From contig CM022665.1 of assembly GCA_012295275.1 (NCBI GenBank), forward strand, positions 13,472,476-13,536,475: DNA of 64,000 bases. The letters run 5' to 3'. This document shows positions 2,988 through 38,621 of this stretch, piece by piece. The notes below the pieces were generated by a model. It was not told the DNA's origin and did no database searches. It saw only the letters and a program-made list of their open reading frames with translations. The stretch's first letter is position 1, and each line of letters begins with the position of its first letter. The translations under genes and the position numbers were made by a program. Source of the DNA: Chrysomallon squamiferum (lineage: Eukaryota; Mollusca; Gastropoda; Neomphalida; Peltospiridae).

Positions 2988-3069
<82 letters not shown>

Positions 3070-4940: not shown

Positions 4941-5032
4941 ATGTTAAGTCGACGAAAGCTTGCTTCAGGTCTTTTCACTATAGAAGAACGTCCAAGATCT
5001 CGTTTTTCTGACAGCAGTCCAAAGAAAGATTC
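4941..5032 (+). CDS. ADGB: Candidate alternative first exon A
   Basis: ATG-initiated segment of 30 codons plus 2 nt ending at a strong donor (gtgagt). The peptide starts MLSRRKLASG and continues through RPRSRFSDSSPKKD; it is basic and Ser-rich, with no homology I recognise. Phase 2 with TC left over: joined to the exon at 31378 it would make a Ser codon and stay in frame. No other exon of a separate gene is visible nearby. The ATG sits in an aaaATG context. Alternative reading: first exon of an unrelated transcript, or a chance open segment. Confidence 0.6.
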
Positions 5033-6312
5033 GTGAGTACATATCAGATATAATTAGTATTATAGCCTGGTGGTATCGTGTTCTGGAACATGTCTGGGGC
5101 AAGCTCAGTTTTCTTTGGTGATTGTATTGCTTAGAGCGCTTACATTAGAATATAACTGTCGCAGAATCAACTTACCTCTACCCACTAACCGCTGTTTCCC
5201 GGTCCAGCCAGTGCCCTATGACTAGTGTATCAAATGACGTTATACGCCTTTTTTGTTCATGTTTTTCTTCTCTTCTGCTAAAGGAGTAAAAATACTGTTG
5301 CCTGTGTGTGTGTGTGTTTTGTTTTGTTTTTTATATCTAGAATCAAAGTAATTACTTTTATATTATTATTTCTGACATGATGAGATTTCCTTAAACAAGC
5401 ATTCATTAACCACTTCCTCAAAATCAGATTTTCAATAATTTCATAGGATTTGTTTTTAATAATTTAATGTTTTATATATATATATATGTATGTATGTATG
5501 TATGTATATAATGATTTTTCATATATGACTAAAACATTTATATTTTTATTTATCGCCATGTACATATATATTTATCCATACTTTTCCCTGTACCACAGAT
5601 AATAATGTAAATGTAATAACTGTATGCATAAGATCGGACAGTAATGTTCCGGAATGTCTTTTCGACCACTTAATATTAGGACGGGTTTTTGAAATTCATT
5701 CAATTTACATGTAATGTTTTATTAACTTAATATTTTAAAATTACTGATTCAGGCCATACTAATAAACACACACTGTTTATATTAATATGTTTCATTTAAT
5801 CTTTTAATTTACATACCATTGATTTTCCAGCGGTGCATGGTATTTTATAGATATATATTTAGTGTTCAGAGATATATTGTTGAATTATTATTATGTGACC
5901 TGTTTTGATATGGATAAATTGATGATCCGGAAAGCTTTGGAACCAAATCGAGGCTGTACGTGTATTTCTAAACCTATAATAGCGTGGAAAGAGCAACCAC
6001 TGACGACTCAGTCATTGTAGTTAATTTGCTTATGCCTTTTACTTCCCCCTTTTCAATCTTATAATGTTTTAATGTAGTTAGTCTGTTATATGCGCATGTG
6101 TGCAAGTGTGTCTCTGTGTGTATGTATGTATGTATGTATTATGTATTTATGTATATGTGTGCATGTGTGTATGTATGCATTTATGTATGTATGTATATTA
6201 TTTATACAGTTTCTCACTACTCCAGTGACATAACTTATATAATTGTTTGTGTTTGTTTACACTGAAGCCGTTTTTTCTACCTTAATATTTTATAATTTAT
6301 ATATTTATAGCC

Positions 6313-6313
<1 letters not shown>

Positions 6314-6384
<71 letters not shown>

Positions 6385-6386
6385 TA

Positions 6387-6418
<32 letters not shown>

Positions 6419-6421
6419 ATA
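6314..6421. repeat. (TC)n(CA)n microsatellite
   Basis: Pure TC run followed by CA run. Confidence 0.95.
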
Positions 6422-7888
6422 CAGTTGTATATAAATGCCAGTTAATAATATCAAATATGAAAACAATGTAACTGCCGCAGTACGAACTCAAATTATAGCG
6501 TTTTCTTCTCAGTAAATTAAAACAGCCTTACGAGATTCTACTAGCTGTAATTTGACCATAAGACAAATCTTAAGTATTAGCCGCTAAATTTTAAGATTTA
6601 TGAATACCTGAAGGGTTCACCTATAAATACCGTTATTTTCTAAGCAACTCGCTGCCCTGGATCAATAAACTAATAAAAGGCGTTGTTTAGAAATTCATTG
6701 CGGTACTTCTAAGGCCACAGATATTTTTTATTTGTTGTCTGAAATTTGACTGCTCATTTTGGGTAGTAGTTAACTGGAAGCTATAGTATGTAATTTGTGT
6801 GTGTGTCTGTATGCATGTGTCTATATACATGCGCAGTCTTGAGTGATCTTTAATACCTTATTTATATTTATGTATATATTAATATGACTATGAGTATATA
6901 ATTTAAGTCTATATATAGATGTATGTATGTATGTATATAAGTATGTATGTATGTATGAATGTGTGTACATATATGAATATATGTATGAATGTATGTACAT
7001 ATATGTGTATATGAATGCATGTGCACAGGTACACAAATATCCATGCATACACAGACTAATACCAAAAGCAACAGTACTTTATTTACAAAGAAATGAAATA
7101 TAGAACAACCTCTTAATGTTACTAATTTCAAGTTAATCCTGCGAACAAACACTTCACTACATACATAGAACTGTCCACAAATACATTATGTAATGTCAAC
7201 ATACCATACAAAAATTCGTAACATATCCATTTTTACGTGCATGTCGTCATAATACTTGAAATATAAAGGTATTGATTGCTTTTATTTATTAATTTATTTA
7301 TTTTTTAAATTAAGAAAGAATAAAAGAAAAGAATGAAAAAAAAAAAAAGGATGTATTATTTTAAAAGAAGGAAATTAATTTCAGAAAGTTTTAATTCACC
7401 TTCATAAATTAGAGATAACAGATTAAGACTGTCTGTCGTTTAATTTATTACAACGGTAAACTGGTGTTAGATAAATTTACAGTCGTCTTTGACCTTCGAG
7501 CTGTGTCAGTTTTTGACATGGACGTGTAATACTTTTTACACTTTGATACAGCATTTCACAGCGGGGATCTCTCATGTTTCAGTAAATCATGTCTCCTTGC
7601 AATTTGTTGCTTTATCGCGAGCATTTCAACTGGATCGCTGGATCAAGCCTTTTACCTGTAATCTTTAAACTATTCCCCATTCTAGACATTTTTCCACTAC
7701 CAATGTATTTATGACTGTGAATTGTTCTTTCAATTATTATTAATATTATTATTATTATTACATCATCATCATCATCATCAATAGAATCACATTTCAGTAA
7801 AATACAGTATTTATCCTTATAACTAAATATGCATATCTACCATACCAAACCCATAATCCAATCCCAGTATATCTCTGAATATCATACC

Positions 7889-7889
<1 letters not shown>

Positions 7890-7930
<41 letters not shown>
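7890..7930. repeat. (CA)n microsatellite
   Basis: Dinucleotide CA run. Confidence 0.95.
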
Positions 7931-7934
<4 letters not shown>

Positions 7935-8022
7935 CATACACACACAGTAAAGTTTACTTTAAAAGTCAAACATCGGTATATTAGCTAGCTATGATTCGAG
8001 CTTTTTATTATTTATTATATTT

Positions 8023-8092
8023 TATTTTGTTTTGTTTTGTTTTATTTTATTTTATTTTATTTTATTTTATTTTATTTTATTTTATTTTATTA
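8023..8092. repeat. (TTTTA)n / (TTTTG)n microsatellite
   Basis: Pentanucleotide run about 310 bp before candidate exon B. Confidence 0.95.
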
Positions 8093-8400
8093 TTACACGT
8101 GCAAATGGAATTTGAATATTTAATAAGCCTGTTGGAAAATGCATATTTTAAGATAACAGTATCAATGGCCAAGTAAAAATGAAAAAGACAGTGACACACT
8201 GACCATAAACAGACTAATTTTAGCATTACTTTTAAATGGCCTAAGGAAGTCTTACAGAAAAGGAATAAACACAGATTGAAGACACTTCAGCTACGACAAA
8301 ACTCGGTACTTAGTGTGGATGTGTTGAATTTAGTTAACCTGAACAACTGATTTCTACACCGCCAGTGGTTGTATAAAATGCTTACAAAATTACTTTCAAA

Positions 8401-8531
8401 ATGTCTGATTCTGAGATAAGAAAACGGAAATACAGCGACACAGTCAGTAAAGAAATCGAATCTTCTTCAGATAAAAGGGTGATTTTAACGAGATCGCCTA
8501 TTTCGCGACGCAAGGGCTCTTTTCGACAAAG
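8401..8531 (+). CDS. ADGB: Candidate alternative first exon B
   Basis: 43 codons plus 2 nt from ATG (aaaATG context) to a donor (AG|gtaatt). The peptide begins MSDSEIRKRKYSDTVSKEI and ends SPISRRKGSFRQ plus a split Arg codon. It is highly basic, with R-K-x-S type sites. Phase 2, so it would read into androglobin exon 2. Treating it as an internal exon fails: the nearest upstream acceptor (cgccag, about 8361) gives an in-frame stop. The segment is richer in CpG than its flanks. Function of this N-terminus is unknown. Confidence 0.62.
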
Positions 8532-9270
8532 GTAATTCTGTTAGATTAGCTGTATAAAGTATATCGTGAAGATGAATGAAATTATAGGCTGAAATACATT
8601 TTGTATACTACCAAGTGATGATGTTAACTCTTAGAGTGAATAACTATTTTTTATGTTAAAATATAAATCTGCTTCATTTATGGAGGTACTATTTTCCGTT
8701 CTGCCTTGGACAGCTGTGACATCATAACTTGTATAGGAATGTAAATAACAGTAACAGCGACAACAACAACAATAATAATAGTAATAATAATAATAAAGGT
8801 ATAATTTAAGGGATTCTTTTCAACGATAATAATAATGTACAACAGATATATAGTTAGCTGCATAATATTTTATTCTTAACTGTTATCTATATTATCAATA
8901 AGTGAGTGTTAAAACTGCTATTTCTATCATCTAAATATTTATTTGTTTGTTTTTAAGATGTGATATTAACATTAAGTATCGTTCACGATGATATTTTTCT
9001 GTGTTGGCATTACCAAATGCTGATGTCAATATTTTGAAAACAAACCTTATTATTTGGACTATTTCTTCAAAACTTTAGTTACTTCTTGAAATTATTTCTT
9101 TCCATGATATTTAACTTCCACAGAAAATACAGAATGTGTCATGAACATGCTTATGGTTTTCATTATGATGACAATAATTTGGTAGAAAAGGCAAGGCAAA
9201 TCTTCTTAACCGCGTATATTAATACATTTCTTTTACTATTAATTCAGTAATATCTACATGCGTAAACTAT

Positions 9271-9302
9271 TGCTATGACGTTCATTGTTAATGCTATGAC
9301 GT
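9271..9302 (+). promoter_or_regulatory. Tandem pair of TGCTATGACGT elements (CRE-like)
   Basis: Two identical 11-bp copies begin at 9271 and 9292, 21 bp apart (two helical turns). Each contains TGACGT, a CRE half site; the second reads TGACGTAA. They lie 162-193 bp before candidate exon C, consistent with its promoter. Confidence 0.4.
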
Positions 9303-9463
9303 AATAACAATGACTGTCACATGGCTAAAAATAATGGTGTAAGGCGCCGAAAGCGTGGTGTTTTTCTACAGTGGATAAGATATTTTGATACACGGACTGA
9401 AAACTTGACAAGAAGACTGACAGTTCTTCTCAAGAAGAAACTCTCTACGCAAAATACATTCTA

Positions 9464-9495
9464 ATGACGAGTTTGAAGCCGCCCGCTGCACTCAA
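9464..9495 (+). CDS. ADGB: Candidate alternative first exon C (short)
   Basis: Ten codons plus 2 nt: MTSLKPPAAL and a split Lys codon, ending at an ideal donor (AA|gtaagt). Phase 2. The segment is GC-rich against an AT-rich background. About 160-190 bp upstream lies a pair of identical TGCTATGACGT elements, a plausible promoter. The exon is too short to score by coding content; support is the donor, the phase and the upstream motif pair. Confidence 0.45.
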
Positions 9496-9929
9496 GTAAG
9501 TGTAGTTTTGAAAACAGTTCTCTGATCATTAGATTTTCGATTTGGATGTGTGATTTTTAGCATATTAAATTACATTAAAGAATGCCCCTCTGGGATGCAT
9601 AGTTCAGTGTAGGAGTGTATTTATAGTTTACTGTCTTTGACAGGATTAGAGGATTTATTATTACAGAGAACTTGTGTAATGGCTTTCATGTTTCCATTTT
9701 TCTAGCTATGTGTAAGAGATAGTAACCAACATTGACATTATGGAGTAGAATTCAGTTAAATAGTGACCCAGGTGTTAGCGCCATTTGAATCATCACTTCC
9801 CACTCCACCTAGAAACGTAGACCTTGGTTTATATGCAAATGTTATAAGTCAAACACAAAAATATCATCTGCTACGTTACTGACATTATACAGATGAATAA
9901 TACAAGTCACTGTTATGTGTTTGTAGACT

Positions 9930-10480
9930 AAATAATCACTTACATGAACATTGTCATTATCTAGGTGCAAAATATTATGTAAAAAATCACTAATATGAAT
10001 GTTGTCATAATTTAGATTTAGAATACAATGTAAACTATCACTAACATCAATGGTTATTATCTAGATTCAAAATACAATGTAAACAACCACCAACATCACC
10101 ATAGTGATTATTTAGATGTAAAATACAATGTAAACTATCAATAACATCAACGTTTATAATCTAGATTTAAAATATAATGTAAACAACCACCAATATCAAA
10201 ATAGTGATTATTTAGATGTAAAATACAACGTAAACAATTACTAACATCAACAGTTATTATCTAGTTGCACAATACAGTGTAAATAATCACTAATATCAAC
10301 AGTCATTGTCTAAATGCAAAATACATTATAAATTATCACTAACATAACATTATTACCTAGATTCAAAATACAATGAAAATAGTCATTAGCATAATATTCT
10401 CACTCCATACCAGGTGCAAAATACAATATAAGTAATAACTCTCATAACAGTATCATTATCTAAGTGCAAATCTGTGTCCG
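9930..10480. repeat. About 50-bp minisatellite, 9-10 units
   Basis: Degenerate units built on 'tatctagatgcaaaatacaa' and 'tgtaaacaatcactaacatc'. The aatac core recurs at about 10022, 10071, 10122, 10171, 10222, 10271, 10320, 10368 and 10420. Alternate units are most alike, so part of it has a 100-bp higher-order period. Confidence 0.8.
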
Positions 10481-10611
10481 TAATATACTTTCATACTTAT
10501 TGTCGTTATTTTAACCATCCTTATTGACTGATATTTGTGAAGATTATTACAAATTAATCCTAGCCATGTCATACACATTTAAGAATGTTAAACCACGGAA
10601 GTTTGCCGTTC

Positions 10612-10624
10612 GTTGCTAGGCAAC
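10612..10624. promoter_or_regulatory. X-box (RFX-type) motif GTTGCTAGGCAAC
   Basis: Near-perfect inverted half sites GTTGC and GCAAC with the usual short spacer, in a small CpG-containing island. It lies about 1.4 kb upstream of candidate exon D and has no open frame of matching phase immediately downstream. A likely promoter or enhancer element, by motif only. Confidence 0.45.
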
Positions 10625-11997
10625 GCAAGCTTAAAAGTTTCTAGCTCATCTTGAATATACACTTCTGTGGCCCCTCCTACGACACGCAAACCAAATGAAA
10701 TATGCTAACGGTAATGTCCACAAATTATTAACACGCCGTCATTCGACAAAGGCCAAACAATTTCCTTTCACGGCTTACCTTTGTTTGTAATGAAGTAATA
10801 TCTCAAATTTCAATGTACTGGGTGGGCAGCTCCATCGACAGAGACTAGACGATAAAAGCTTTTCTTTCTTTTTTTTTCCTTTTTGTCCAGTTTCATCATA
10901 GGTAACAGGTAAATATTAAGGAGAGTACAAAAAAGACCTGGTACTGTAAAAGATTAAAAATCCAACTACATGTATATTTATAAATAGGTTTTTAATTATC
11001 TCCGTTCATTCGGCGGGGTGTTCCGTGGCCTCTGGATTGAGTTTCTCTTTTAAATAATTCACATAAATTGACTAGGTATGGAATGTACGTTTTTCATGAT
11101 GTTTCTCTCTGGATGTCAGTCGGTAACAAAGACGGCTGCTTTGTAATTACACGTAAATGTTCATGTTTTTTTTTTGCCCATTGACAGGTGGGCAAGTTCG
11201 TTATTGTAAGTGCAAGGATTAAATAACATCCGATGGAATTAATAGAAATCTTTTTTCGACCAATTTTCAACACGATGGGATACATTAACATTTAATTTTC
11301 ATTGCCGTGAAACGGATACCATTGAGTGAAGTCTTCCTGTATCTTGGCGTTTCTCGTACAGTGCTAAATTATTCATTACGCTGATCAAGTCTGTTGTATT
11401 TTGTTATTAAAAAAAAGAGAGAGAGAGAGAGTGAAGTCAAAATGTGGTGTTACACAGCTTTAGGTATTAGAAAAATGAACAGTTTTCTGTTGAAAGAGTC
11501 ACTGTTACGGGAATAGTGGATTATTTCAGGTTTGCCTATCTTTTTTACTTGAAACAATTTTTTCAGCTGTCTGAGGAATCACCTGGACTCATATTTTTCT
11601 TCTTAGTAAATTCCATTAATTTGTCTTCACTCAGACGAAATCCTTCTGAATACTTTTCCTGTATTCATGATTCCTTTTAACAGCGATCTGGAGATAACTG
11701 CGATTGCTTTGTACATGTATTTCACTTTGCTTATAATGAAGCTACATTTAATGCAGCATTGTGTGACCGTTAAACATTGTTGCCAAAACCAAGAATACTA
11801 ATAAAAGAAGTTCCTAATAATATTCATAGGGATTTGCTAGCTGTAATTCTGAAGAAAGAAGACCAAAATGAAGATACAAAATGTTCTGCTATGCTTTAAA
11901 AGGCCAATGACGTAATACTGTTTATTATAACAAGATAATAAATGAGTCAGATTTTTTTTAATTTTACAAATCTTCATAAATTAACTCAAAGATTAAA

Positions 11998-12197
11998 ATG
12001 TCTGCTCGATCACGAGCTCAAAAGATACGACATGTTACGAGTGCATCTCGCGCTGGAAGGGGTGCGAAGGGAGTTTCCGCCGATGATTGGAATTCAGTTA
12101 GAAGGGGTTCGAAAGGAGATGAATTCAGTTGTTCACGTTCATCCTCTAGGTCATCTGCTGTTACAAGGCCGCCATCGGTCACTCGACCCGTATCCAG
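11998..12197 (+). CDS. ADGB: Candidate alternative first exon D
   Basis: 66 codons plus 2 nt, ATG in aaaATG context, donor AG|gtaagt. The peptide is Arg/Ser-rich: MSARSRAQKIRHVTSASRAG, then VRRGSKGDE, then SCSRSSSRSSAV, ending VTRPPSVTRPVS with a split Arg codon. The RRGS motif fits PKA-type kinases. It is clearly CpG-rich compared with its surroundings. An in-frame TAA lies about 27 nt before the ATG, which argues for a true first exon. Phase 2, compatible with exon 2 at 31378. Confidence 0.65.
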
Positions 12198-12936
12198 GTA
12201 AGTGTGACATATAGTCGCCACTGGAAATAAAATGTAGCTGAGAACGTTAATGCTGCTTTAATTTGGAAGACGTAATTAGGGCCTATATAAAATATGTACT
12301 TTACTATCAATAAACACACACATGTAACGGTATTCTAAAAAAAAAAAAAAACCCCACCATATTTGGAGCTTTTATTCATTTGTTTGTTTGTTATAATTAA
12401 ACTTACATTATTTTGCAAATGCTGATGAAATTTTCTTTTAGTTACATTTTTTTATCAACATATTGCACATGGAGTTTGGTTAAAAGTCAGGCCGTATCTT
12501 GGTATATTTAAAAAGATTTTAAATTAGCAAACTTAAAGAAAAATCCGTAATGTTAAGTTAATTATGTTGAATCAGCAGATATATTATTATTATTATGAGT
12601 TGATTTAAATCCAAAATTTTATATATATTAGAGAGGATATATTATTCAATATAGCATTGCTTTTTGACACTTAAAGTATATACCATGCACAAACACAGCA
12701 GTTTAAACCCTGTCTCTCTTTCCACACACACACGCGTACACACACGCATACATTACAGTTCTTTACAAATGCTGCTTTTTACTTTTTTCCCCACTTAATA
12801 ATGATATATTGGTATTTCACAAATTCAGTTGTAGTGTAATAATGGGTGCTATATTTATGTACGTGAACGAAAAAAGAAAAGCTTTTAGAAGACATTAGAG
12901 TCTGTAAAATAAGTAAAAATAACATAAATCATCAGA

Positions 12937-13010
12937 ATGACGTCGCTGTTTGTTATGAAGGCGGTACAAACGAATAATTTACGTGACTTCGTCGATTTAC
13001 GCTCGTGTAT
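12937..13010 (+). CDS. ADGB: Possible alternative first exon D2
   Basis: ATG followed by 24 codons plus 2 nt, with many CpGs, ending at AT|gtaatt (the same donor hexamer as exon B). The peptide begins MTSLFVMKAVQTNNL and has no RRxS motif. Phase 2. The sequence TGACGTCG, close to a CRE, overlaps the start codon. The donor is only moderate and the segment was found by looking for the phase, so this is weaker than A, B, D, F and G. Confidence 0.33.
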
Positions 13011-13512
13011 GTAATTTGGCATCTGTCATTTAGAAAATATAATTTACAAATGGCGGTTAAAATATTTCATTATCTTAACCTAGTACCACGGCCTCTCTTG
13101 ATCAAAACTCTCTGGAGAAGTTATACTCGGCTATGCCCATGAAAAAACATTCTCGATCAGTTCTCTAGTACTATTTAAACTTTTTATTAGACAGAAGTAG
13201 TTAAATTTTAGCAAATTTTCTAATACTGAAAGCCTAGCTCAGAAGTCTTCCCCCCTCCCGATAACGTATTACCCAACAACTTTTTTCCTTTTTCTTTCAG
13301 TCTATCTTCTTCTTCTATATTTTATTTATTTATTTATCATTTTTTAAAACTAGTCTAATATTCGTAATCACGTTCTGCTATTAAACAAGTAGAAATAAGA
13401 AAATCTGTTTTCTAAATCTAAACATTCCAAGGTCAAATTAATTATTTTGTAATTTTATAACTTTGATTCGATCTTGTAACAGCAGTTTTAGGTCCATATT
13501 TGATTCCATTTA

Positions 13513-13552
<40 letters not shown>

Positions 13553-14626
13553 TCATTTTAATGTGCAATATTAATGTGGAAAGTAGGTATTCGGTTAATA
13601 TAAAAACCAAAATTTACATTACGTCAGAATCTAAACTATTGATTAAATTTCATTAATTCAAATTCGTTTGGGTCTTAATTTTTATTAACGTTCATTCATA
13701 AATTAATCACAGTTATCGTTAATAAATGAAACAAATTTCTGATAATGTTTGTTTAAAATTAATGAGTATCGGGGATGAGCACAAAACCTACAGTTCCTGG
13801 GTTACCACTGACATTAAACGAGTACGTCTTAATGTTGACCTACCAAACAAAATCAAATTTTATATACATTATTATAATTTATATGTATCTTGCAACCATT
13901 GTATGTAGTGGCAAGAAAAATTTCTGCATTTTCACACACTGACCAAAAATATAGCTTTTTGAGACTGAGCCTTAATGACAAAAACAAATTATGCTATTTG
14001 CATATATTATATTGCTAAAAATTATTTCTTCAGTGTTTAATTGCTAGTTTTGATCTTAAAAGACGATTCTTGATTAGAGTTTTCATTATATATATATATA
14101 ATAACTGATAAATTGTTGTTATATGAGAACTGTTTTGTTTTGATGTCCTGTTACTGTTGAGAGCGGTTGAACTGATAATTAAAACAGTTATTTTCATTGA
14201 ATTGTTGGACTGCAGTATGTAAGGAATAAATGATTACTGTGTTATGACATCAGCTTTATCCTGCACACGTCGAATGGTCATGTGAAACTCATAATAGCCT
14301 CGTTGCAAATTGTCATTCTTACCTTGGCAGGCTAAAGCTGATGTCTTAAGATAGTAACCAGTTATTCCCTCTTTATAATAATATTATTTAAAACAGAAGA
14401 AATGCCAGTAGCATATTGCTATCGAGAAGAGTTTGCATTAACGCTCATGGAATGTTCACCTTGAACTACAAGACATAGGCCCGTACTGTATTGTAAATCC
14501 GAGGGACTGGAGAATAAATGATCACACCACCATATAGTTTTTCTTTTCTCTGATCGATATGTGTTTTTGTGTCCTTTCTTTCATTTTTATATATATATAT
14601 ATATAGCTAATGAAACTACCACCATA
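13011..14626. other. Between candidate first exons D2 and E
   Basis: AT-rich with an (ATT)n run at 13517-13552. A short ATG segment with phase-2 donor (MSTKPTVPGLPLTLN, 13775-13821) is possible but unproven. Confidence 0.45.
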
Positions 14627-14760
14627 ATGGCGTCCGCGTTCCTTTTCGAAAAACGTTCATTTTGTCGTATAAGTAATATTTTATACACTTCCATCAGATC
14701 AGTTAGTCCGAATTTCGGAACACAATCTAAGTTTTCACTAGAGAGTTCTGACAAAGGTCG
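14627..14760 (+). CDS. ADGB: Possible alternative first exon E
   Basis: ATG (ccataATGG) followed by 44 codons: MASAFLFEKRSFCRISNIL and then a Ser-rich stretch ending LESSDKG. Two donors are possible. CG|gtacat keeps phase 2 and would read into androglobin; AAAG|gtcggt, four nt earlier, has a better upstream match but gives phase 1 and a frameshift. A tiny upstream ORF (MKLPP) precedes it. Ambiguous donor, hence low confidence. Confidence 0.33.
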
Positions 14761-16037
14761 GTACATTTTACACACACACACACATCATCATCATCATCAT
14801 CCGACAGAAAACATTGATTTTCTGACCATTGTGCTGAGAATTACAAAGACTGGATTAATCTGGATATATTTACCATATTCTGTCGGATATAATTCCTACT
14901 ATGGAACTGATAAAAGCATTATTAAAGTGTATCTGTGTTTGCGCAAACATAAGTTTTATTATAAGCATGTGTGTGTCCACTGTTACAGTTATATTTATCA
15001 GAACAGAACAAAAATTAATAGATTTATTAGTTTCTTTCTCTTTGATTTTGTTCTTCATGTCGTTATTATTATCATTATTGTTGGTCTTCTTATTATTATT
15101 ATTGTTGTTGTTGTTGTTGTTGTTATTTCACATCTGCTTGCACATACGAAATTATGTTATTTCCTTCCCGGTATAAATTAATATTTTTATTTGGGTTTGT
15201 TTGTCAAACGGTTTTAAAGAAGTCTATATTACTGTGTCTCTTTGTATATGAATTATAATGTACTGCTGAATGTACTTTGAAGCCATTCTGCATCTTATCG
15301 TCTATCCGTTAGTCCATACAGAAGTACGTACAATCATATTAGTATGTATACCGTGTGTCAGTTTAGTGAAACATTTTATTTATTTATGTATTTGCTTATT
15401 TTATATTTTAGTTTGTTGTTGTTGTTTTTTTAAATATCAGTTGCTACACGCAAGTGTGTCAGTGGAGCAGTAATAAGACAAGTCTTCTGAAATGCTTCAT
15501 CAGCTGCCATTTTCCTTTCTTTGATATAGACAAATAGAAAAAGAAAACAAAAACCCATTCATATCATCATTGTTGCAAATGAATATATATGACATTTAAA
15601 ATGTAGCTTCACTAGTCATCTACCCGTATTCTTTCTCTTTCACTAACTTACTAACTCTATCTAGAAAAGTCCCAGTATTTGTTTCTGTTTTATACAGCAA
15701 TTCAAAGTCAACCTGAAATAGATTGATAAAAGTATAGCTGCGCGGCCATTTCGACCTAATGTACAATCGATATAGGTTATTATAACAAAAGAAAAAAGAT
15801 TTAATTTAAAAATAAAACATGCATGTTAAAAATTGTCAACACAATATCAAACAATTTCCACTGTAATCAAGTCTCTTGGAACATTAGACCCATCTGGTAT
15901 AAACTGCCTCGAGGTAAAAAAAAATAATAATTGTAATGAAAATGTTGCCAATAATCTGGGATAATGACAAAATATGACGTTAATAAATGGGGACAATTAT
16001 ACACACTTTTGGTACAATCGAATGAGAACCCGCCATC

Positions 16038-16051
16038 GTTGCTATGACAAT
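16038..16051. promoter_or_regulatory. X-box-like motif GTTGCTATGACAAT
   Basis: Differs from GTTGCYATGGCAAC at two positions, in the 3' half site. It sits in a CpG-rich patch about 1.3 kb upstream of exon F. The TTGCTATGAC core also occurs about 190 bp upstream of exon C. Confidence 0.33.
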
Positions 16052-18124: not shown

Positions 18125-18185
<61 letters not shown>

Positions 18186-21100: not shown

Positions 21101-22438
21101 TAAATAACAACAACAACGACAACAATAAATAAATAAATAAATAAATAAATAAATTATTAATAAAGACGTTGTTCTTTTGTTAAATTTGCTTTTGCTAAAG
21201 AAAATCTGGCGAATGAAAACAAAATCTTAAATAACAGGAAAAACTACGTAATAAAGATTTTATTTGTAGAAACACTTACTCTACCTGTTTACCTTAAAGA
21301 TATATGATATAAAGTGTATACATCCGTTCTGTGACTGTAAACACTGCAGAATTAGTCACACCATGGTCCATTTAGTAATGCTTTCACGTGGAATATAATT
21401 ATTACAGATGCCGAGCAACAAGGCCGGGAAACAATAAAATTCTAAAGATGTTTGAGTTACATAAATTCCAACAGGGTCTGACAAACAATGCTTTTAAGAG
21501 TGTTTGTTAAGCGAGATACAGCCAGTATGATCGTTTCCATGAAAGTGAGCGGAGGAAATCAATTTTCGTTTCTGAGATCAGAGTAGAATTTTGATTAACT
21601 CGTCTGTTTAGTACATCAGTTTAATGATTTTGTAATGAAGAAGACACATATCCTCTAGACAATAAATAAGACTGAAATAAATCAAAGTCGTATGAAAACC
21701 TATTTCGTTTTTGCAAGAAAATTACTTTAACCGGTAACTGATTTCTTTTTCTTTTTAAAATGTTTTTCCTGCGGGTTTTTTCCGTCTCCGTGCTGTGTTG
21801 CTGTCATGGGCTCCAAAACAAATTTGCCATTAAAAAGAACATACATCTGAGTCACTAAAAAAATAAAATAAAATAAAATAATTTAGAATAAACATCTTTG
21901 TTTAGAATTTTTCTCATATAACATGATAATGATACATCTCATATTTACGTGAAGTTAATATGTAGGAATATAAGTGCATAATCAATTAAAATTAATGCTG
22001 ATAGGTATTTATATGTTGTATTATATCTAATGCATGCAGGCATATGTGTGTGTGTGTGTGTGCATATATAGGAAGGTGGGCAACACATGTATGTATAAAA
22101 TTTATGAATAGATTTTGTATTATTATTATTTTAATATTTTGGGCTTCGAACTTTATTAAAACTTGTGACACGATGTCATTCAGAATTCTTAAAATATATA
22201 TTTATGGCACTGAGACTATTGAATTTTCTTTATTTTTTCTTTAAGAAAACCCACTGCAAAATAAATTTATTGTGTGTATTTAAAATATATTTATATAACA
22301 TATTTTCAAACTATATAAATAATTATTCAGTATATATATATTTAAGTTCGATGTAATCCGAATTCATTTGTGTACAAATTAAATTAATCATATTGGCTAT
22401 TCCTTAGCTGCAGATTAAAATAGCATCGAAAGTGTATT

Positions 22439-22472
<34 letters not shown>

Positions 22473-22493
22473 AATAATTACACAAAAATGTAC

Positions 22494-22524
<31 letters not shown>

Positions 22525-23099
22525 TGTGAAATCAAATTAATTAAACAAAGGACTTTCATTCCAGTTTTTTGTTATTATTTATTTTCTGTTTCTGAATGCG
22601 CTTAGACCATATATTGCAATTCTTCAATGTACAATTACAAAAGGCCTATCTGTATTTACGTGTTACTTTAAACATTATTGTGTTTCGTTTTAATGGAATC
22701 TATAGTACTCTGTGGGATACGTGAACATGCAGTATCGTGTTGTTCTACGTACTGTTTATTTTATGTCTCAAACGGCTAAATCAACTTTCGCGAATTCCTT
22801 ACAACGTTCTTAAATCGGAGTCATAAGAATAGCCACTGGACCAAGACAATGTGGGGTGCTTCGCTTTAATACGATATCACTTCATTTCGTTGTTGGAGGT
22901 GTCTCGAAAAACCTCCAGTAAGATTAACTGACTGTTGAAAGATAACAAATTATTTATTTATTTTACATTTGAATTATATATTGTGCGTGGAACAGTATGT
23001 TCGTTTTCGCTTAAAAGGAAAGAAATGTTATCATTCCAGTTACAGGTGAAGTAATGGAATAAAACATTGGAAAATAGATACTAATAAAGATGCAAACCT
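17540..23099. other. Between candidate first exons F and G
   Basis: (GAT)n at 17585-17640, (TAA)n at 18126, many A/T tracts. A CpG-rich patch at 18525-18650 (gttgcggcggctgcgcgcaa) has no matching reading frame. Short phase-2 ATG segments at 20736-20761 (MTKQPYQA) and 21539-21582 (MKVSGGNQFSFLRS) are weak candidates only. Confidence 0.45.
18126..18205. repeat. (TAA)n microsatellite
   Basis: Trinucleotide run. Confidence 0.95.
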
Positions 23100-23509
23100 A
23101 TGCTGATTAGTGAATCAAAATTTTCAGACAAAAAAAAAGGTGGGGGTAAAAAAGTAGTGATTATGAGTAGGAGGACATCCTTGTTACCAACTGGCGGGAA
23201 AAGACTGGCTGCCAAACGACAGTCTATAAAAGATGGGCAACAGGCACTGCACAGAGGATCATTTTGTCTGTTCGATATTCAAGAAAAATATTTATACATT
23301 ACGATTCGCACTTATCCTTCCCACCCGGACACAGAGACAGAAATTATTATCGCTCAGGGACCGATATATCATGTAGACAGCAGACGTGGCTCTTTGCTAC
23401 CATCTGACAGAAGACAGTCTCTATTTCCGGTTGATAGGCGACCGTCTGTTTTCCCAGCTGACCACAGAGATGAGGTGATTACACCCGACAGTGACCGCAG
23501 AGATCATAG
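23100..23509 (+). CDS. ADGB: Candidate alternative first exon G, repeated RRxS sites
   Basis: The longest of the set: 136 codons plus 2 nt from the ATG at 23100, or 115 plus 2 from the in-frame ATG at 23163 (MSRRTSLLPTGG). An in-frame TAA precedes the first ATG. It ends AG|gtaaaa in phase 2. The C-terminal part holds three 9-residue repeats, SRRGSLLPS, DRRQSLFPV and DRRPSVFPA (23379-23459), with a fourth related copy at the N-terminus (SRRTSLLPT, 23166-23192); the repeats are visible in the protein more than in the DNA. Between them is FCLFDIQEKYLYITIRTYP. I do not recognise a domain. It would join exon 2 in frame, giving a split Arg codon. Confidence 0.68.
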
Positions 23510-23607
23510 GTAAAAGACGGGCAGAAATTAATATTTATGATAAAAATATATAATGAACAGTATATATGTATGTATTTATTAATGTGCATTATATAAAGGT
23601 AACTTCA

Positions 23608-23613
<6 letters not shown>

Positions 23614-23672
<59 letters not shown>
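23614..23672. repeat. (CT)n microsatellite
   Basis: About 100 bp downstream of candidate exon G's donor. Confidence 0.95.
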
Positions 23673-23677
<5 letters not shown>

Positions 23678-24068
23678 AACATTGTGAATAAGAAGCCACC
23701 AACTTGCAGACATGCCAAGGCTTGTCAGAGTAACTTTATTTTATTACTATTAGTTTTTTAACATTATTAATTTAATTTCCATTGCGTTTTTCGGATTGAG
23801 CACTAGCAAAAAGCTTTAACCACACACGAGGTATCAGTTTTCTTTTACAAACAACAATTAATTATAACAAAATCAAACACTGCTTACATTCATATAACAT
23901 GCAGTGTTGTAATTTGTATAAAAGGTATTACATGTAACAAATAAGAATGTAAAAAATTATATATCTATATTGGCAACAAACAAAAAAAAATAAAAAAATA
24001 AAAAAATAAATAAAAAAATAAAAACATAAAATAAAAATTTTAAATATAATTAATTAATTAATTAGCTA

Positions 24069-24073
<5 letters not shown>

Positions 24074-24122
<49 letters not shown>
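24074..24122. repeat. (TAA)n microsatellite
   Basis: Trinucleotide run in an AT-only stretch. Confidence 0.93.
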
Positions 24123-24123
<1 letters not shown>

Positions 24124-25202
24124 ATAGTAGTGTTAGTATTAGTACTGGTATTAGCATTAGTATTAATATTAGTCATTTTATCATTTATTTTTTTTTATTT
24201 TTTTTTTTTTTAATGACGCGGTGAGCTTGTAACACAAACATGTCAATAATAATAAATAAATAAAATAAAATAAAATAAAATAAAAATTAATAAAATGCAT
24301 AAATAAATGAAAAATCTTATTAACAACAGTTTTTGCCAGTGATTTACAAACGTTTGCAGGTTTACATTATCACGGGTTTACACGAACACACACACATTTT
24401 TTTTTTTATATCAGTATTTCATGGTTTACTTACATTTGTGTATGCGAAGTAAAGCTGGCAATCAGTGTGCATCCTCAGTAACCCTGAAATACTTAATTAT
24501 TAACAAGACTTTTGTGTAAAAAAACAACAACAATTTCTTTTTTTTTAAATTAATAGTAATAATAATTTCTTTAAAGTATAATTATTTCATTTGTTTCTTT
24601 TAATCAACAATAACAATAAAGTATGTTCCTTCAGCCTAAATTCAAAGACAATAAATGAATAAATAAAATTCGTTTTTACAGTCATTCCATCAGGCTAGTT
24701 TTTTTCTAACTCTCAAAGATACATTTCAGTGAGTGTTTTCTTCTAGTCCGTTTATTTTATCTTCAGCTTTACAAAATGTCACAATTGTCGAAGCTGATTA
24801 ACTTTGATTTAACACATAATTTAGTTTTATGAGAAGCATTATAAAAATGAACAGGTTATTAAAACCAGAAACATGCTCAAACACAGATCTGAATTTCGAT
24901 AATTTATGTATCAGTCTAACAAATCTCCATTTATCTCTATATCTGGGTTATGCAGTCATAAATTGTATTAAACTGTTTTCAATACCTTGTTATTTATTTA
25001 TTTTCTAACCGTTATTATTCGACCGTTGATATATTATTGCAGGTAAAACGTAAAAATCAGTGGGGAATAAATAGAGGCAATATTTGATTTATGAATATTT
25101 ATGTGATATATAAATGAATTATTACAATAGTTAATCGACCGAAGTAAAACATTGGGCTATCCTGTCATTACTACCCTCGCCCTTTTCTCGCAAGTACCAC
25201 AT

Positions 25203-25204
<2 letters not shown>

Positions 25205-25300
<96 letters not shown>
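25205..25300. repeat. (CT)n(CA)n microsatellite
   Basis: Compound dinucleotide repeat about 520 bp upstream of canonical exon 1. Confidence 0.95.
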
Positions 25301-25710
25301 ATCATACGGTTTTCTTAAAATCGATATTTTTACATTTTATTATTATCGCAATAAACTGTCTAGCTGTGAGATTAGAGCAGTAACTAATGAAGCTATAGAG
25401 AAAGTAAACAAAAATTATCCCTCTCGAAAAATAACAAAACAAAATAATAATAATAATAATAATAATATTAATAATAATAAAATAATAATAATAAATTTAA
25501 AAAAAAAAGAAGAAAAAAAAAAGAAAGAAAATAAATAAATAAATAGACAAAGTTCTTTTGATACTACTAAAATGTTTAATTACATTTATTTTTACATGTA
25601 AACATAATTTATCAATTTTTCATCGCATTAATGTGCAATAAATAAAATATTTACTCTTGCCGACACTTTCTTAATTCCAGTTTTTGACATATCCAGTAAT
25701 CGAGAAAGCT

Positions 25711-25748
25711 GCGCATGCACAGCGGCATTAGTGATTGGACATGGCAAC
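25711..25748. promoter_or_regulatory. Probable core promoter of canonical androglobin exon 1
   Basis: Within about 110 bp of the start codon lie GCGCATGCAC (9/10 of the NRF1 core, 25711-25720), an inverted CCAAT box ATTGG (25734-25738, NF-Y) and ATGGCAAC (25741-25748), one half of an RFX X-box. This is a typical TATA-less set for a ciliary gene. No transcription start can be read from sequence. Confidence 0.5.
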
Positions 25749-25819
25749 AAGAGCGACGAACGATACTTGATAAGTTTTCTCAATTGTTGTCAATGAAATT
25801 TCAGTAATTGTTTAATGTC

Positions 25820-25884
25820 ATGGCTTCAAAGGGCACTAAAAAGGGTTCAACTTTCAATCGTGTGAATTCTGCAACACCAAGAGA
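25820..25884 (+). CDS. ADGB: Androglobin exon 1 (canonical start)
   Basis: [20 protein letters not shown] and onward, 21 codons plus 2 nt, donor GA|gtaaga. The start resembles the vertebrate androglobin N-terminus (MASK, basic run, NSA). The ATG has a strong context (G at -3 and +4). An upstream ATG at 25815 opens a 17-codon overlapping frame in weak context. Confidence 0.88.
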
Positions 25885-28800
25885 GTAAGAACCTTTGAAT
25901 AAGTGCTCATTTTTAAAGTTATTTTTGTTCCTTGGATACAATATGGCTGCTACCATATAGCCTGTCAACTCCAGAAACCTCTTAGCGCACTTGTTAAGGT
26001 CCATGAAAGCTTGTTATAATAGTCCTAGTTTAACGACTTTTTAAAAGTCCATTTAATCTTTGACATATTTATATAGCTCTTTGTTAAAATACTGTTCACT
26101 GAGTCGAGATTTATTTCATATGATAACATTTATATATTTTAACAATTATTATTTTTTATGTTTATCAGTTCATTTATGATATTCAGGTGAATAATATAAT
26201 TCTGAATTTTATAGTAAAATATAATTGAATTACATTTTGTAATTAAATGTGATCTCTACATTTTTTTTTTTATCATGGTACTGTCTCTGATTATTACTAT
26301 AAAAAAAGTATTATTAATCGGTAACTATGCTAAATCATTAAACTGATTTTAATATCAAATCTGATAAACAGATATAAACAAATACTTCATATATTAATGT
26401 ATTTATTATAATTTTATAACTACATTATATCAATTTTTCTTAAATGTCTATTAATTATTCAAATAATGTTTTGTACACAGAACGTTAATTCTTTATCATC
26501 CATACAGCATAGTTATTCCTTGATGCCATAAAATAATTTTATTAATTTGTTTACCACTTTCATATTATTTATTTATTTCATATTTCATTATATATATATA
26601 CACACACACATCACCCCCCGTTAAACATATTTTTCTTTATATATATCAAATTTCAGAAAATAATTTTTTTAATTTTCATGTTTTGCAGGAAATTTTGCTG
26701 ATATATCTTATTGAAAGTATCAGTATATAAAATGTGGTATTTGGCATAAATTGATTAGTTACATTTGAATACATCTGGTATTTGTATTTTTCAAGAAACT
26801 GACATTGTATTGGTGTTCATTAGATAAGTGTACGAGTGAATGAATATGTTTGTGTACACTTATTTTTTGTGTGTTTAGATACGTGTCTTTCATATGTGAT
26901 TTCACTGCAATGCTTACTACTTCTAACAAAATAGTGATTTAAAAAGCAGAAAGAAAAAAGATTATTTCAAATAATGAAATTTTTGTATGTATGTTTAAAT
27001 TGTGGCTATATTTGTTTATATACATGTGTGTTAGTGAATGTGGATCCATATTTATCATAAATTTAATATATATACACAGGTGTTTTGCATAAAATAAATG
27101 TGCTTGTGTGTGTGTTACTGAATGTGGATTTACTTTTTTTTTATGTTATCATATATATAAAAAGAAACATAACAGAAAAAATATATATATACAAATATGT
27201 TTGTATACTAAATATAACTATTATTATTACAATTCTCAGAATATTCATTTATTACATTATGTGGACAGATAACAAATACATATATTTATTGTACATTATC
27301 TCTCTCTCTATAACTTGACATTAATATTAGTTTCATTATCATCTGCATCAAATTCATCATTACCATCTGGATATTTGTAAATGTTTTATTTACTGTTTCA
27401 GAAAAAAAAAGATATATATATATATATGTATGATCTATATTTAAACATAACATTATCATTTAGTGTGGATCAATTAGGACATGACATCCTACTCCAGATT
27501 TTTTGTCTATTTGTTTGTTGTTGTTTATTTGTTTTTTTATAATATCCACTACTCTGAGTGTGTGCCTATCTTTTCTGAAAATGGGATCATTCATTGTATA
27601 ATTTCTGTATCACTATTTAAAAACACTGTATTTTCACACGAGTTCAATTTCTAAATAGGAATGTTTCCTTTCTTTTATCTCATTAAGTTTTCAAATTAGA
27701 TTTGAATGAAGACTGATGCAGTTAGTTAGTTTCAACCAATCAGTGTAAATTGCTTTTAATGGCTTCAGTTAGGATTGGTCTTGAAAACTATTTTGAAAAT
27801 CTGTTTTTTTTTTTTTGGAAAAAAGTAATACTATTTAAAAAAAATATAATTATATATAGACTTAAGAGTATTTTGTTTATAATTAACACTGAAATATAAA
27901 TATTTTATTATTATGATTATTATTATCATCATTGTTATTATTTATATATTTTGTAATTAAAAAAAGTATATCATTTATTCATTATAACAGGTTTTTTACA
28001 ATTAATATTTAAAAAATAAAATGTTTCTTCTATTTTCCATTTCTACATATAGAAAGTTCTTGAAAATATTAATCTTCAGAAAAAATAGAATCATAATAAT
28101 TATTTATTTTTATTTACTTAATCAAGAATAGCCATATTAAATGTCTGTCTAAAACTACTAAACTCATTTACTGTGATCTGTCATATTGTTAGATTATTAC
28201 ATGTGTCATCATCATTAGCAGTAATAATACAACTAGTAACATTGACGTTATCATCAAATTCAAAAATCTTTATACATCTGTCATTAATAGGCTGAATTTA
28301 AACAGCTAATTACTGGGATCAAGTAAGACAAATACTGTGATACCATTACTAATAGACTTTATTTTTATTTTATTTGACTATCAGATAATAGTATTATTTA
28401 ATCAGTTTGTTCTCTCTATATCAAAGATCATCTTAAGAATAATGAAAATAAAATGGTATGATAGACAAAAACATGTAATTTGGATAGCCAAGATAATTTT
28501 TCATCATTTCTATCATTTGTTTATCTTTTCTTTTTTTGAAATTATTTTGTTTGTTTTGGTTTATTTTTTCTCTTGTTTGGGGGTGGTAATTGTCAGTTGT
28601 TTATATATACATTTAAAACATTTATGCATCTCATTTAGAAAAAGTATTTTAATTAATTTTTATTTAAAAAATAAAAATGTGAATTAAAACACATCTGAAA
28701 TAGATTTTTCCTTCTTTGTGCATTGTATGAAATGCAAGGAAGTTATGAAGAATGGTTTGAAAAATTAAAGTTAAATTTCTGAAACTCTATCTTTGACAGT

Positions 28801-29619
28801 ATTTGAAATTAATTCTGTCAGCTGAATGTCATCAAGATTCTGTGAAGTCTACATGGGCAGTTGTGTCACAGGCAGTCACTACAAATGTCATTATGTTACT
28901 TGACTGATTTATGTTTACAGTATTTTCTTGACAAATGATGCTTGAAACATAATACTTCTTATCTGCAGCTAGATGCAAATAGATCTTGGTGAGAAGTTGT
29001 TTAAGAATATTGTTTCAACTTCAACCAGGTGATATATTCATAAGTTTACAGAAATGGAATGAATAATATTTCTATGTCCATAGTATTGATTTTAATACTT
29101 TTTATTTCTGTTTTGTTGTTTGTTTTGTAAATTGTTTAATAGGAAGTAGAATATTTTTATACAGTAACCTTTTGAATGAAAGAAAATCAAAATTCCTAAA
29201 CTTTAGGATGTAAATACTAATATTATAATAACTTTGTTGCATCAGAATTAAAAACACTGTGTTTTTCTAAACTCATTATTTAAATGGCTGCAAACAATAC
29301 AACAACAAAATGATGCTAAACACTGGGGATTTTTAAATCAATATTTGTGACTGACAACACAGATCAAACAGCGCTTGGTTATTGATTCCACATGACAAAG
29401 AGAAAAACCTCCCTCCCTTCGTTCATTACCACTCAACAAGTTTTACCTGCACAGGTTAATGGACTGTTCAAGCCACAGGTTTAAGGACAATGGGGTTTTC
29501 AACGAAAGTGGGATTTAATCATCTTTTCCCCTGACCTCAGGTAAAGCAGTGTTTTGTGGCTATGGTCACGTTAGCATGGGTTTGGTTACCTGTTTAATCA
29601 ATGTAACTATTTTACATGG

Positions 29620-29660
<41 letters not shown>

Positions 29661-32600
29661 TTGATGTAACTTGCAGTAATAATGGAGTTGTTTGAGGTAT
29701 GTTTTATTATTATTTAAAGAAAGATGCTTTTTTTTTTTGTAAGTATAGAACAAATGTTTTCTCTTTGTTCTTATTTTACTTTTTGTATTTTATCTTTGTA
29801 GTTTTATCTTCAATTGTATATAACCCTTGCTTAAGAAATAATGATGGTTTTAACAGAATTCTTTGTACATCAGAAATATTAAAATATTGGATATGATCAT
29901 TTTTAAAGATGGGAGGATTTTTCTATTGATAAATATTCATTTATTTATTATTTTATTTGTCATCTTTTGTTTTATATGTATGTGTGATTTTGCATTTTCA
30001 TTTATTTTTGATTTTCTTACATTTTAAAGTATTAAATTCTTTATTCTTTAGTGAAGAAATTTTGATAATACTTGTTTTCAGAAGTTAAGACAAATTCTTG
30101 TTAATGTATCTCAAAAAAAAAAAAAATTCATTAATTATAATTTAAAGGTTCTGGGTTATAAAATAACAAAATAATGTTCTTGATATTCTTTTTCAGGTAA
30201 TTTTACTAATTAAATGTTTTCTTAAATGTTCTAAACATTTGAAAATATATTAAATACATTTTGCAAATAACAAATGTGTTTGGAATAAACTAAGAATAAA
30301 GTAACGTACTATTATTTACTAGAAATAAAATTATAAATTAAAATGAGGATGCCTTTAAATATGATTAGAAAACTAAATTGTTACAGTATGAAATATCTGA
30401 AATAAATTTATAGCTGTATAAAATAAATACAATTTAAACAAAATCATGGCAGTATAAAATATCTGAAATACATTTACAGCAATATAAAATAACTGAAATT
30501 TACTGAAATTTACAAAAGTTAGAATTATCTGACATTTTTTTTTTTATAGCAATGTAAAATATACAATTTACACAAAAGTAGAACAGTATAAAATATCTGA
30601 AATAAATTTATTACAGTATAAATTTAATCTACAATTTACACAAAATTATAGCAATATAAAATATCTGAAATAGATTTAAAGCAGTATAAAATAAATCTTC
30701 AGTTTACGCAATTATTACAGTATGGCTACCGATACATACAACATAGCAAATTATAGCACTGTTTTCTACTCAAGATTTCTTTGTTCACTTGCTATTGAAT
30801 CAATAAAGTTTCAGTACTTTTATTATTTATTGGAGCAGAAACCTTTAATTTGAAGTACATTAAAAATTAAATTTAGTTGCAATTCTTGTTACAATTTTCT
30901 TGCTACCTAGTTATAATGATGTGTGTGTAGATAATTATTGGTATGTATGAATGTTTTTTTTAAAATGCCAATTGTAAATAACCTCTTTCTTTGTCTTAGT
31001 TCTATATGTTCAAGTTAGGATATTTCTGCATGCAAAATATTCATAAATTAAATTTTATTTTATTTTTAATTTTATTATTTTTTTCTATCTTATTTGAATA
31101 TTTTTGTTTTAGTTTGTTATTTTATAGTATTATTTTATTTTATTTTATTTTATTTCATTTTTTATTTAATTATGCTTTATTTCATTTTGTTTTCTATTCA
31201 TTTCATTTCTTTTTCATTTGTATTTCTGAATAATGTATCTAGAAATTACATTAAAATAAAACATGTAACTTTATAAAGTGATTGTGATTTTATAATTAAT
31301 TTACTGACACCTCGTAATCAGTGTTAATTATTAACTGATTAATTAATTATACTTTAATTTATTTCATTTTATTTCAGGGCTGCATCTGTTGCTGCTAGTG
31401 CAGGAGGTCAGGACTCAAAACGTCCCAAAATTATAATCTGGCCTGAGTGGAATGATGCTGATATTAATGCTGAGAAATGGGTAAGAATTTTTAGAATATT
31501 AATAATAAAGATGATCATGATGATTCTTTCTCAAAAACAATTACAAATAAAATGAAATACTTTAAAAACAAACAAACAAACAAGTAAATAAATAAGTAAA
31601 TAAATATAAAAATAAATAAATAAGTAAGTGTAAATAAATAAATATATAAATAAATAAATAAAGTATAATAAAGTAAAACAAAACTTTGGAGTACAGTTGA
31701 GTAGTAATGATATTAATATATTATTAATTAATAAAGTGCCAGTGATAAAAATGAAGCTGTTGATGGTAGTCCTGCAGCTTTAATTAAACTCCAGAAAATT
31801 ATTAGGTTCAAATTGTTGATGTTTACCAATTAAACTATTTCTATTATTAATTAATATTACTTTTATTTTTGTTTTTGTTGTTATAATTATTCTTATTGTT
31901 GTTGTTGTTTTATTATTGCATTTTAATTTATTTTGTTTTTCATGTTCTTCCAGGAAACAGCCAGAAAAGATGACAGGAAAGGAAAATCTCCAGTTGTGGT
32001 TAGAAATTTTAAAATATATTTACACATTTACAAAATATGACAGTGCCAAGCCATTATTCTAATAATACTCCCTTATATAAGACAAATTTTATATTTATTT
32101 CTTTTATTTTTATAATCAAAATGAGAGATATTGTAGAAGTTTGAAATATATAATCTGTTTATTAAACAGAAACATTTTCCTTGAATGCAAAACTTTTTTT
32201 TTCATCTTAACATATATTTTATTCTATAATTAATATTAATGTTTCATTTTTCTTTTTGTTATTCTTTCCAGTTTTATTCAGTATATTCATTTACTTTCAT
32301 TTTAAAATATGTAATTTTATTTTGTTATTTGAATTCTATGTAAAATAAAACAGAAGAAGCATTATATTTTTTTTATTTTCTGAATATATGTATTAAATAA
32401 GAGAAAAGCAATTTCCCTTACTATTTATTCATTTTGCAATTTAGGTTCAGCATTATTTTGATGATCCAGATGGAAAAATTGAAATGCCCCCATCGCTAAA
32501 AGTAGACCACTGGAAACGTCCTCAAGAGTACATGCCTGATAGGGTATAAATAGAAACTCTTTTAAATAATAACTAAAATTATAAATGTTTTGCTTGAGAA

Positions 32601-38583: not shown

Positions 38584-38616
<33 letters not shown>

Positions 38617-38621
38617 TTTTA

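What the first reader, a model, noticed from the sequence alone, without database searches (positions are those of the whole stretch)
4941..31480. Tandem array of alternative first exons feeding androglobin
Six isolated ATG-to-donor segments (4941, 8401, 9464, 11998, 17358, 23100/23163) precede the canonical exon 1 at 25820, all on the + strand and with no downstream exons of their own. Every one ends in phase 2, the phase of canonical exon 1. Joining exon 2 at 31378 gives Ser, Arg, Lys, Arg, Met, Arg and, for the canonical exon, Glu; none gives a stop. If phases were random, six matches would be expected about once in 729. B, D and G cannot be read as in-frame internal exons because of upstream stops. 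The result would be a globin-calpain protein with many exchangeable N-termini from about 21 kb of separate promoters. I know of no such description for androglobin.
Basis: partly seen in the sequence, partly recalled or inferred. Interest (0 to 1): 0.88.

Follow-up and report, generated by a model that had tools for sequence, protein, structure and literature searches.

The report
Swappable first exons of androglobin
A snail-like mollusc's androglobin gene, known from other organisms as a cilia gene, likely can start from any of several spare first exons laid out upstream, which would give the protein interchangeable front ends; predicted androglobins of two clams, a scallop and another snail carry relatives of two of these front ends at exactly the same join.

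Summary
The six ATG-to-donor segments are where stated, on the + strand, and would all join androglobin (ADGB) exon 2 in frame. Two of six are now backed from outside the window. Exon G (23163-23509) matches the N-terminus of predicted Pecten, Dreissena and Mercenaria ADGB (Haliotis weakly); the end of exon E (17358-17539) matches that of Gigantopelta ADGB. Each match sits directly before the exon-2 residues. In Dreissena one protein with the ordinary start and one with a G-type start are otherwise the same (1112 of 1116 aligned residues). The core idea holds: an array of alternative first exons for ADGB. A, B, C and D have no significant relative; A and D are plausible, B borderline, C unproven. 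The 1-in-729 phase argument is post hoc. New here: CpG depletion starts just behind the ordinary exon 1, so the array lies outside it; the tails are rich in basophilic-kinase sites; three strong RFX-type palindromes lie upstream, none in the gene body. Best reading: alternative, likely RFX-driven promoters giving ADGB exchangeable, kinase-addressable tails. No transcript of this genome was available.

The parts
4941..5032 (+). Candidate first exon A (31 codons with the shared one), joins exon 2 as Ser
   Evidence: ATG to GT, phase 2; 4th of 15 in the neutral ranking; no homologue found. Plausible.
8401..8531 (+). Candidate first exon B (44 codons), joins as Arg
   Evidence: ATG to GT; 5th of 15, near the best - strand control, better-ranked donor in phase 0; no homologue. 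Borderline.
9464..9495 (+). Candidate first exon C (11 codons), joins as Lys
   Evidence: ATG to GT; too short to test. Unproven.
11998..12197 (+). Candidate first exon D (67 codons), joins as Arg
   Evidence: Best of 15 in the neutral ranking, donor CAG|GTAAGT; weak likeness to Mizuhopecten tail, 26 of 1000 shuffles reach it. Plausible.
17358..17539 (+). First exon E (61 codons), joins as Met; translation may instead start at 17466
   Evidence: End of E matches the N-terminus of Gigantopelta ADGB, 70% over 23 residues, tblastn E 1e-8, 0 of 1000 shuffles, same junction.
23163..23509 (+). First exon G (116 codons), joins as Arg
   Evidence: Matches N-termini of Pecten, Dreissena, Mercenaria ADGB (0 of 1000 shuffles each), Haliotis 6 of 1000; profile of the four finds this ORF alone among 2048 (E 7e-11; next 1.7).
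25820..25884 (+). Ordinary first exon of ADGB ([10 protein letters not shown]...)
   Evidence: Aligns with the N-terminus of ADGB from molluscs to human.
31378..31480 (+). Common exon 2 of ADGB, acceptor used by every tail
   Evidence: Spliced reading frame; residues AASxAAS begin here in other species.
3819..3833 (.). X-box-like palindrome, 1.1 kb before A
   Evidence: 16.5 bits with a recalled RFX matrix; enrichment control.
10612..10624 (.). X-box-like palindrome, 1.4 kb before D
   Evidence: 20.7 bits.
17410..17423 (.). X-box-like palindrome inside E, upstream of its internal Met (17466)
   Evidence: 19.4 bits.
1..25800 (.). CpG-normal domain holding the whole array
   Evidence: CpG o/e 0.90 over 4941-25819; change point 25.8-27.1 kb.
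26900..64000 (.). CpG-depleted ADGB gene body
   Evidence: CpG o/e 0.23 over 31378-64000, raised only at 54-56 kb by an insert.

Best explanation
The 21 kb upstream of androglobin's ordinary first exon very likely hold a set of alternative first exons of the same gene: two of them (E and G) match peptides that predicted androglobins of other molluscs carry directly in front of the exon-2 residues, and the rest would join exon 2 in the same frame. How it would work: each exon likely has its own promoter, and the transcript is spliced from its donor to the exon-2 acceptor at 31378, so the calpain-globin body stays the same while an N-terminal tail of 11 to 116 residues is exchanged. The ordinary exon is likely the germline (testis) start, because CpG depletion, a trace of germline gene-body methylation, begins just behind it; the upstream starts are then likely used in somatic ciliated cells under RFX control. 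The tails are dense in RRxS-type sites, so they likely let PKA or a similar kinase act on ADGB differently in different cilia. Shown: homology of E and G, the junction, the CpG boundary, motif densities. Inferred: promoters, tissue use, RFX binding, kinase.
For: Homology at the exact junction: G to Pecten, Dreissena, Mercenaria, E to Gigantopelta, 0 of 1000 shuffles each; tblastn of the Pecten tail lands on 23163-23435 and of the Gigantopelta tail on 17472-17540; profile of four G-type tails finds 1 of 2048 window ORFs. Two starts in one species: Dreissena P0002/P0110, 1112 of 1116 aligned residues identical; Mya P0087/P0105, 1690 of 1717. Of 15 alternative tails that end directly before AAS, 14 end in a residue that an NNG codon can encode, 9 in Arg (hand count). 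CpG switch. [RK][RK]x[ST] 11 against 3.1 in the array and 30 against 8.3 in 17 other tails, 0 of 2000 shuffles each. X-boxes 3 against 0.25, 0 of 150 resamples.
Against: No transcript from this genome. A, B, C, D have no significant homologue. Donors of A and G are weak (0.59 and -0.16, though ADGB exons 3 and 4 score lower still). Codon score does not separate frames. The other species' tails are mostly predicted isoforms. 8 of 17 tails, and C, have no [RK][RK]x[ST] site; the Gigantopelta tail has none; the looser Rxx[ST] is not notable in the array (245 of 2000). The CpG boundary by itself also fits an untranscribed upstream region. Loss of Adgb in Tetrahymena only mildly affects swimming.
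Confidence: 0.8

Rival explanations
1. Only E and G (with the ordinary exon) are real alternative first exons; A, B, C and D are chance open segments.
For: No significant homologue of A-D among 17 tails; B near the - strand control; C has 11 codons.
Against: A and D outrank every - strand candidate; A, B and D also carry the [RK][RK]x[ST] type of site; tails evolve fast and most isoforms are hidden by 90% clustering.
Confidence: 0.35
2. Some upstream exons belong to another, tissue-specific gene whose body lies beyond ADGB, so that ADGB is nested in it.
For: The array lies in CpG-normal DNA while the ADGB body is CpG-depleted.
Against: E and G relatives sit on ADGB itself in five species; no other protein matched the array peptides in the three searches (two of them capped).
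Confidence: 0.07
3. The other species' alternative N-termini are gene-prediction artefacts, and the upstream segments are relic or regulatory DNA.
For: They are mostly predicted isoforms, and automatic prediction can attach wrong first exons (general knowledge).
Against: An artefact would not recreate the same roughly 100-residue G peptide at the same junction in a scallop, two clams and this unannotated genome, nor E in Gigantopelta.
Confidence: 0.06

Closest known systems
Numbered predicted ADGB isoforms in public mollusc records (Pecten X8, Dreissena X7, Mercenaria X26, Gigantopelta X2)
   Same: Tails homologous to G or E at the same junction to exon 2.
   Different: Only automatic annotation; no description of the tails or of an array was found in the papers searched.
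Aplysia classical calpain AplCCal1 with an alternative transcriptional start (PMC5650170, passages)
   Same: Molluscan calpain-type protein with an alternative N-terminus from a second start site; it changes auto-inactivation.
   Different: Another calpain family, one alternative start; that paper left androglobin out of its analyses.
Alternative-first-exon genes such as PDE4/dunce and plectin (recalled, no call)
   Same: Several ATG-bearing first exons join one common exon and exchange a short tail.
   Different: Not known to me for a globin or a ciliary central-apparatus protein.
Mammalian ADGB promoter (PMC7949040, passages)
   Same: Cilia gene responsive to FOXJ1 and RFX2.
   Different: One promoter around the first exon is described; [quoted passage not shown]

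Membership tests
Androglobin | Sequence homology over the calpain-like and following regions | tested here: met
   76% identity to Gigantopelta ADGB over 1113 residues; Pfam Androglobin_II E 7e-15.
Androglobin | Permuted globin domain with IQ motif | tested here: inconclusive
   Matching pieces to residue 1390 of Gigantopelta ADGB lie in the window, the 3' end does not; domains not scanned one by one.
Alternative-first-exon array | Several ATG exons on one strand with donors compatible with one acceptor | tested here: met
Alternative-first-exon array | The exons are joined to the common exon in proteins | tested here: met
   For relatives of E and G in other species; not met or not seen for A, B, C, D.
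Alternative-first-exon array | Each exon has its own transcription start | not testable with these tools
   No RNA data; X-boxes are only suggestive.
PKA-regulated axonemal protein (considered) | Basophilic kinase consensus in the tails beyond composition | tested here: met
   with the limits given in the report.
PKA-regulated axonemal protein (considered) | Phosphorylation of the tails by PKA | not testable with these tools
   Only consensus density was measured.

The most novel reading that the evidence does not exclude
Molluscan (and perhaps wider bilaterian) androglobin carries an old promoter array that writes a 'tail code' on a protein of the ciliary central apparatus: each class of cilium or sperm gets ADGB with its own RFX-driven, kinase-addressable N-terminus, so that cAMP signals set the beat of each cilium type separately.
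Probability: 0.27. Interest if true: 0.82.

Novelty: new variant of a known kind. Interest (0 to 1): 0.64.

Why it matters
Androglobin's function is still unclear, and in the papers whose passages I saw it is treated as one protein with one N-terminus. An array of exchangeable tails, two of them with relatives in another snail (E) and in bivalves (G; lineages parted about 500 million years ago, recalled), gives a ready handle: which cilia use which tail, and what the tail does. It makes a testable link between cAMP control of ciliary beating and a central-apparatus subunit, and offers a reason why mollusc ADGB records carry many numbered isoforms. It also shows how a short first exon with no Pfam match can be validated by the peptide that relatives carry at the same junction.

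Tried and rejected
Pfam on A, B, D, E and F/G and on a stretch just before C (9300-9461): no family. PDB sequence matches of G, D and E: weak and unrelated, not used. Further first exons: tblastn of 17 alternative N-termini gave matches below E 1e-3 only in E and G. Tandem duplication as origin of the array: 20 of 28 direct-repeat families in 4800-26000 were listed; they are simple repeats or the block at 9954-10392, and none joins two array exons. Link of G to the deuterostome tails of Ptychodera and Apostichopus: not significant (18 and 33 of 1000 shuffles). Codon score as proof of coding: rejected by the frame control. tRNA and Rfam: nothing. A donor threshold of 5 was tried first and finds only D among the claimed donors; the later scan used -0.2.

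Full report
What was checked. I read the whole window and verified each claimed segment. All six run from ATG to GT on the + strand, leave two bases, and would give Ser, Arg, Lys, Arg, Met, Arg with the G that opens exon 2 at 31378. The ordinary exon 1 is 25820-25884 and gives Glu. Exons 1-10 (25820-38974) join to an open 378-residue protein; exon 9 needs a GC-AG intron. tblastn with Gigantopelta ADGB places pieces up to its residue 1390 along the window to 63707, so the gene continues beyond the window.

Chance. I enumerated ATG-ORFs of at least 25 codons with a donor in 1-25810. On the + strand 15 candidates remain, phases 0/1/2 = 7/3/5. Ranked by codon score plus donor score, the first five are D, E, F/G, A and B; the best of 8 on the - strand scores 6.7, against 10.0 for A and 7.2 for B. 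Two cautions: off-frame codon scores of B, E and G are as high or higher, so the score mostly measures composition, and for B and G this ranking prefers a donor in phase 0. The 1-in-729 argument is post hoc. C is too short to test.

Independent evidence. Three protein searches used the array peptides plus an ADGB stretch as positive control. The first (candidates of about 540-1718 residues, capped at 7988) gave 79 hits, all with ADGB-type Pfam domains. The second (about 1143-3636 residues, 7741 candidates) gave 131, of which 120 are listed. The third (about 239-760 residues, capped at 7996) gave 4. I then looked at what mollusc ADGBs carry in front of exon 2. Many start with the ordinary exon (MASK, MAAK and the like). 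Others start with something else and switch to the exon-2 residues (AASxAAS) at one point.

G-type tails: Pecten (41% over 108 residues), Dreissena (36% over 92), Mercenaria (28% over 123) and, weakly, Haliotis rufescens. With the array peptide shuffled 1000 times, no shuffle reached the score for the first three; 6 did for Haliotis, which is only suggestive given 102 comparisons. A profile of these four, built without the window, found the window's G ORF at E 7e-11 among 2048 ORFs; the next was E 1.7. Of the 102 exon-by-tail comparisons (6 exons, 17 tails of 8 residues or more), four are convincing and Haliotis is suggestive. Among the 25 printed, the next lowest counts are 12, 18, 18 and 19 of 1000; none of the comparisons with A, B, C or D is convincing.

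One gene, two starts. In Dreissena, P0002 starts with the ordinary exon and P0110 with the G-type tail; of 1116 aligned residues 1112 are identical. In Mya, P0087 (ordinary) and P0105 (a 57-residue tail) share 1690 of 1717. The database is clustered at 90% identity, so isoforms are hidden in clusters (50 members for Pecten, 85 for Ruditapes). Ptychodera, Apostichopus and Holothuria also have other tails at this junction, so the design may be older than molluscs, but their tails are not demonstrably related to G.

CpG boundary. CpG observed/expected is 0.90 over 4941-25819, 0.25 over 25820-31377 and 0.23 over 31378-64000; the one clear exception in the body is 54-56 kb (0.65), where an insert with terminal inverted repeats lies. 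The best single change point is 26900; positions listed from 25800 to 27100 are within 1.7 log units, against a gain of 144 over no change. In oyster the CpG ratio of genes correlates with measured methylation (rho -0.616), methylation is over-represented inside genes, and the authors mention a theory that missing methylation allows access to alternative start sites (PMC3840415, passages). I infer that the germline start is the ordinary exon and that the array is a lightly methylated domain of tissue-restricted starts. The pattern alone does not show that the array is transcribed.

Kinase-site density. [RK][RK]x[ST] occurs 11 times in the six array peptides (A 1, B 2, C 0, D 1, E 2, G 5) against 3.1 in shuffles; RRx[ST] 6 against 1.5. 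In 17 tails of other species the counts are 30 against 8.3 and 16 against 3.6. None of 2000 shuffles reached any of these four values. The looser Rxx[ST] is not notable in the array (245 of 2000) and mild in the others (42 of 2000). In Pecten, Haliotis and Ruditapes the ADGB body has 0 to 0.05 RRx[ST] per 100 residues and the tail 1.5-1.9; Gigantopelta has 0.11 in the body and none in its 23-residue tail. Limits: 8 of 17 tails have no [RK][RK]x[ST] site, the G-type tails are not independent of each other, and shuffling destroys local clustering. In Tetrahymena, Adgb belongs to the C1b/C1f central projection and Cfap174 was found in Adgb precipitates; loss of Adgb changed motility only slightly (PMC8175508, passages). 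Chlamydomonas FAP174 binds the anchor AKAP240 in overlay assays (PMC4901443, abstract). That puts an A-kinase anchor in the neighbourhood; that a kinase acts on these tails is inference.

RFX sites. With a matrix typed from recall, three X-box-like palindromes of 16 bits or more lie in the 26 kb upstream (3819, 10612, 17410) and none in the 38 kb body; 150 first-order resamples averaged 0.25 and none reached three. Mammalian ADGB responds to FOXJ1 and RFX2 (PMC7949040, passages). The site at 17410 lies inside E but upstream of its internal Met (17466), close to where the Gigantopelta protein starts, so E may be shorter than given.

Taxon. ADGB identity is 76% to Gigantopelta over 1113 residues, 67-68% to two Haliotis and 63% or less to the other 24 sequences compared, with Gigantopelta as sister at support 1.000. 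No cephalopod was among the listed hits that bear a species name, so a cephalopod was not in the tree.

Literature. 90 papers in the held library name androglobin; 30 were listed. Passage searches in five of them (with 62, 52 with 63, 53) showed no alternative first exon of ADGB. The 2026 survey mentions isoforms only as one possible explanation of near-identical sequences; [quoted passage not shown] Searches of androglobin with first-exon or promoter terms, with molluscs, and with alternative splicing added nothing in their listings, nor did alternative first exon with motile cilia (titles and abstract starts seen). Supplementary files and papers outside the library were not seen.

Verdict. 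E and G are almost certainly alternative first exons of androglobin, resting on protein homology at the exact junction; A and D are likely, B possible, C open. Promoters, tissue use, RFX control and kinase control are inferences in falling order of support.

Noticed in passing
9954-10392: Nine copies of a 43-nt unit spaced about 50 nt apart, 77-91% like the reference copy, between C and D (family D14).
   Followed up: no
54969-55567: Insert with 39-nt terminal inverted repeats (85% complementary) and CpG-rich interior inside a CpG-depleted ADGB intron, MITE-like.
   Followed up: partly
37646-37808: ADGB exon 9 must end at a GC donor (AAG|GCAAGA) to keep the frame, a GC-AG intron.
   Followed up: partly
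36910-37045 and 39385-39510: Two closely similar intronic stretches within ADGB, seen by eye.
   Followed up: no
P0112, P0003, P0106: Hemichordate and sea-cucumber ADGBs also carry other N-termini directly before the exon-2 residues, two of them rich in RRxS-type sites.
   Followed up: partly
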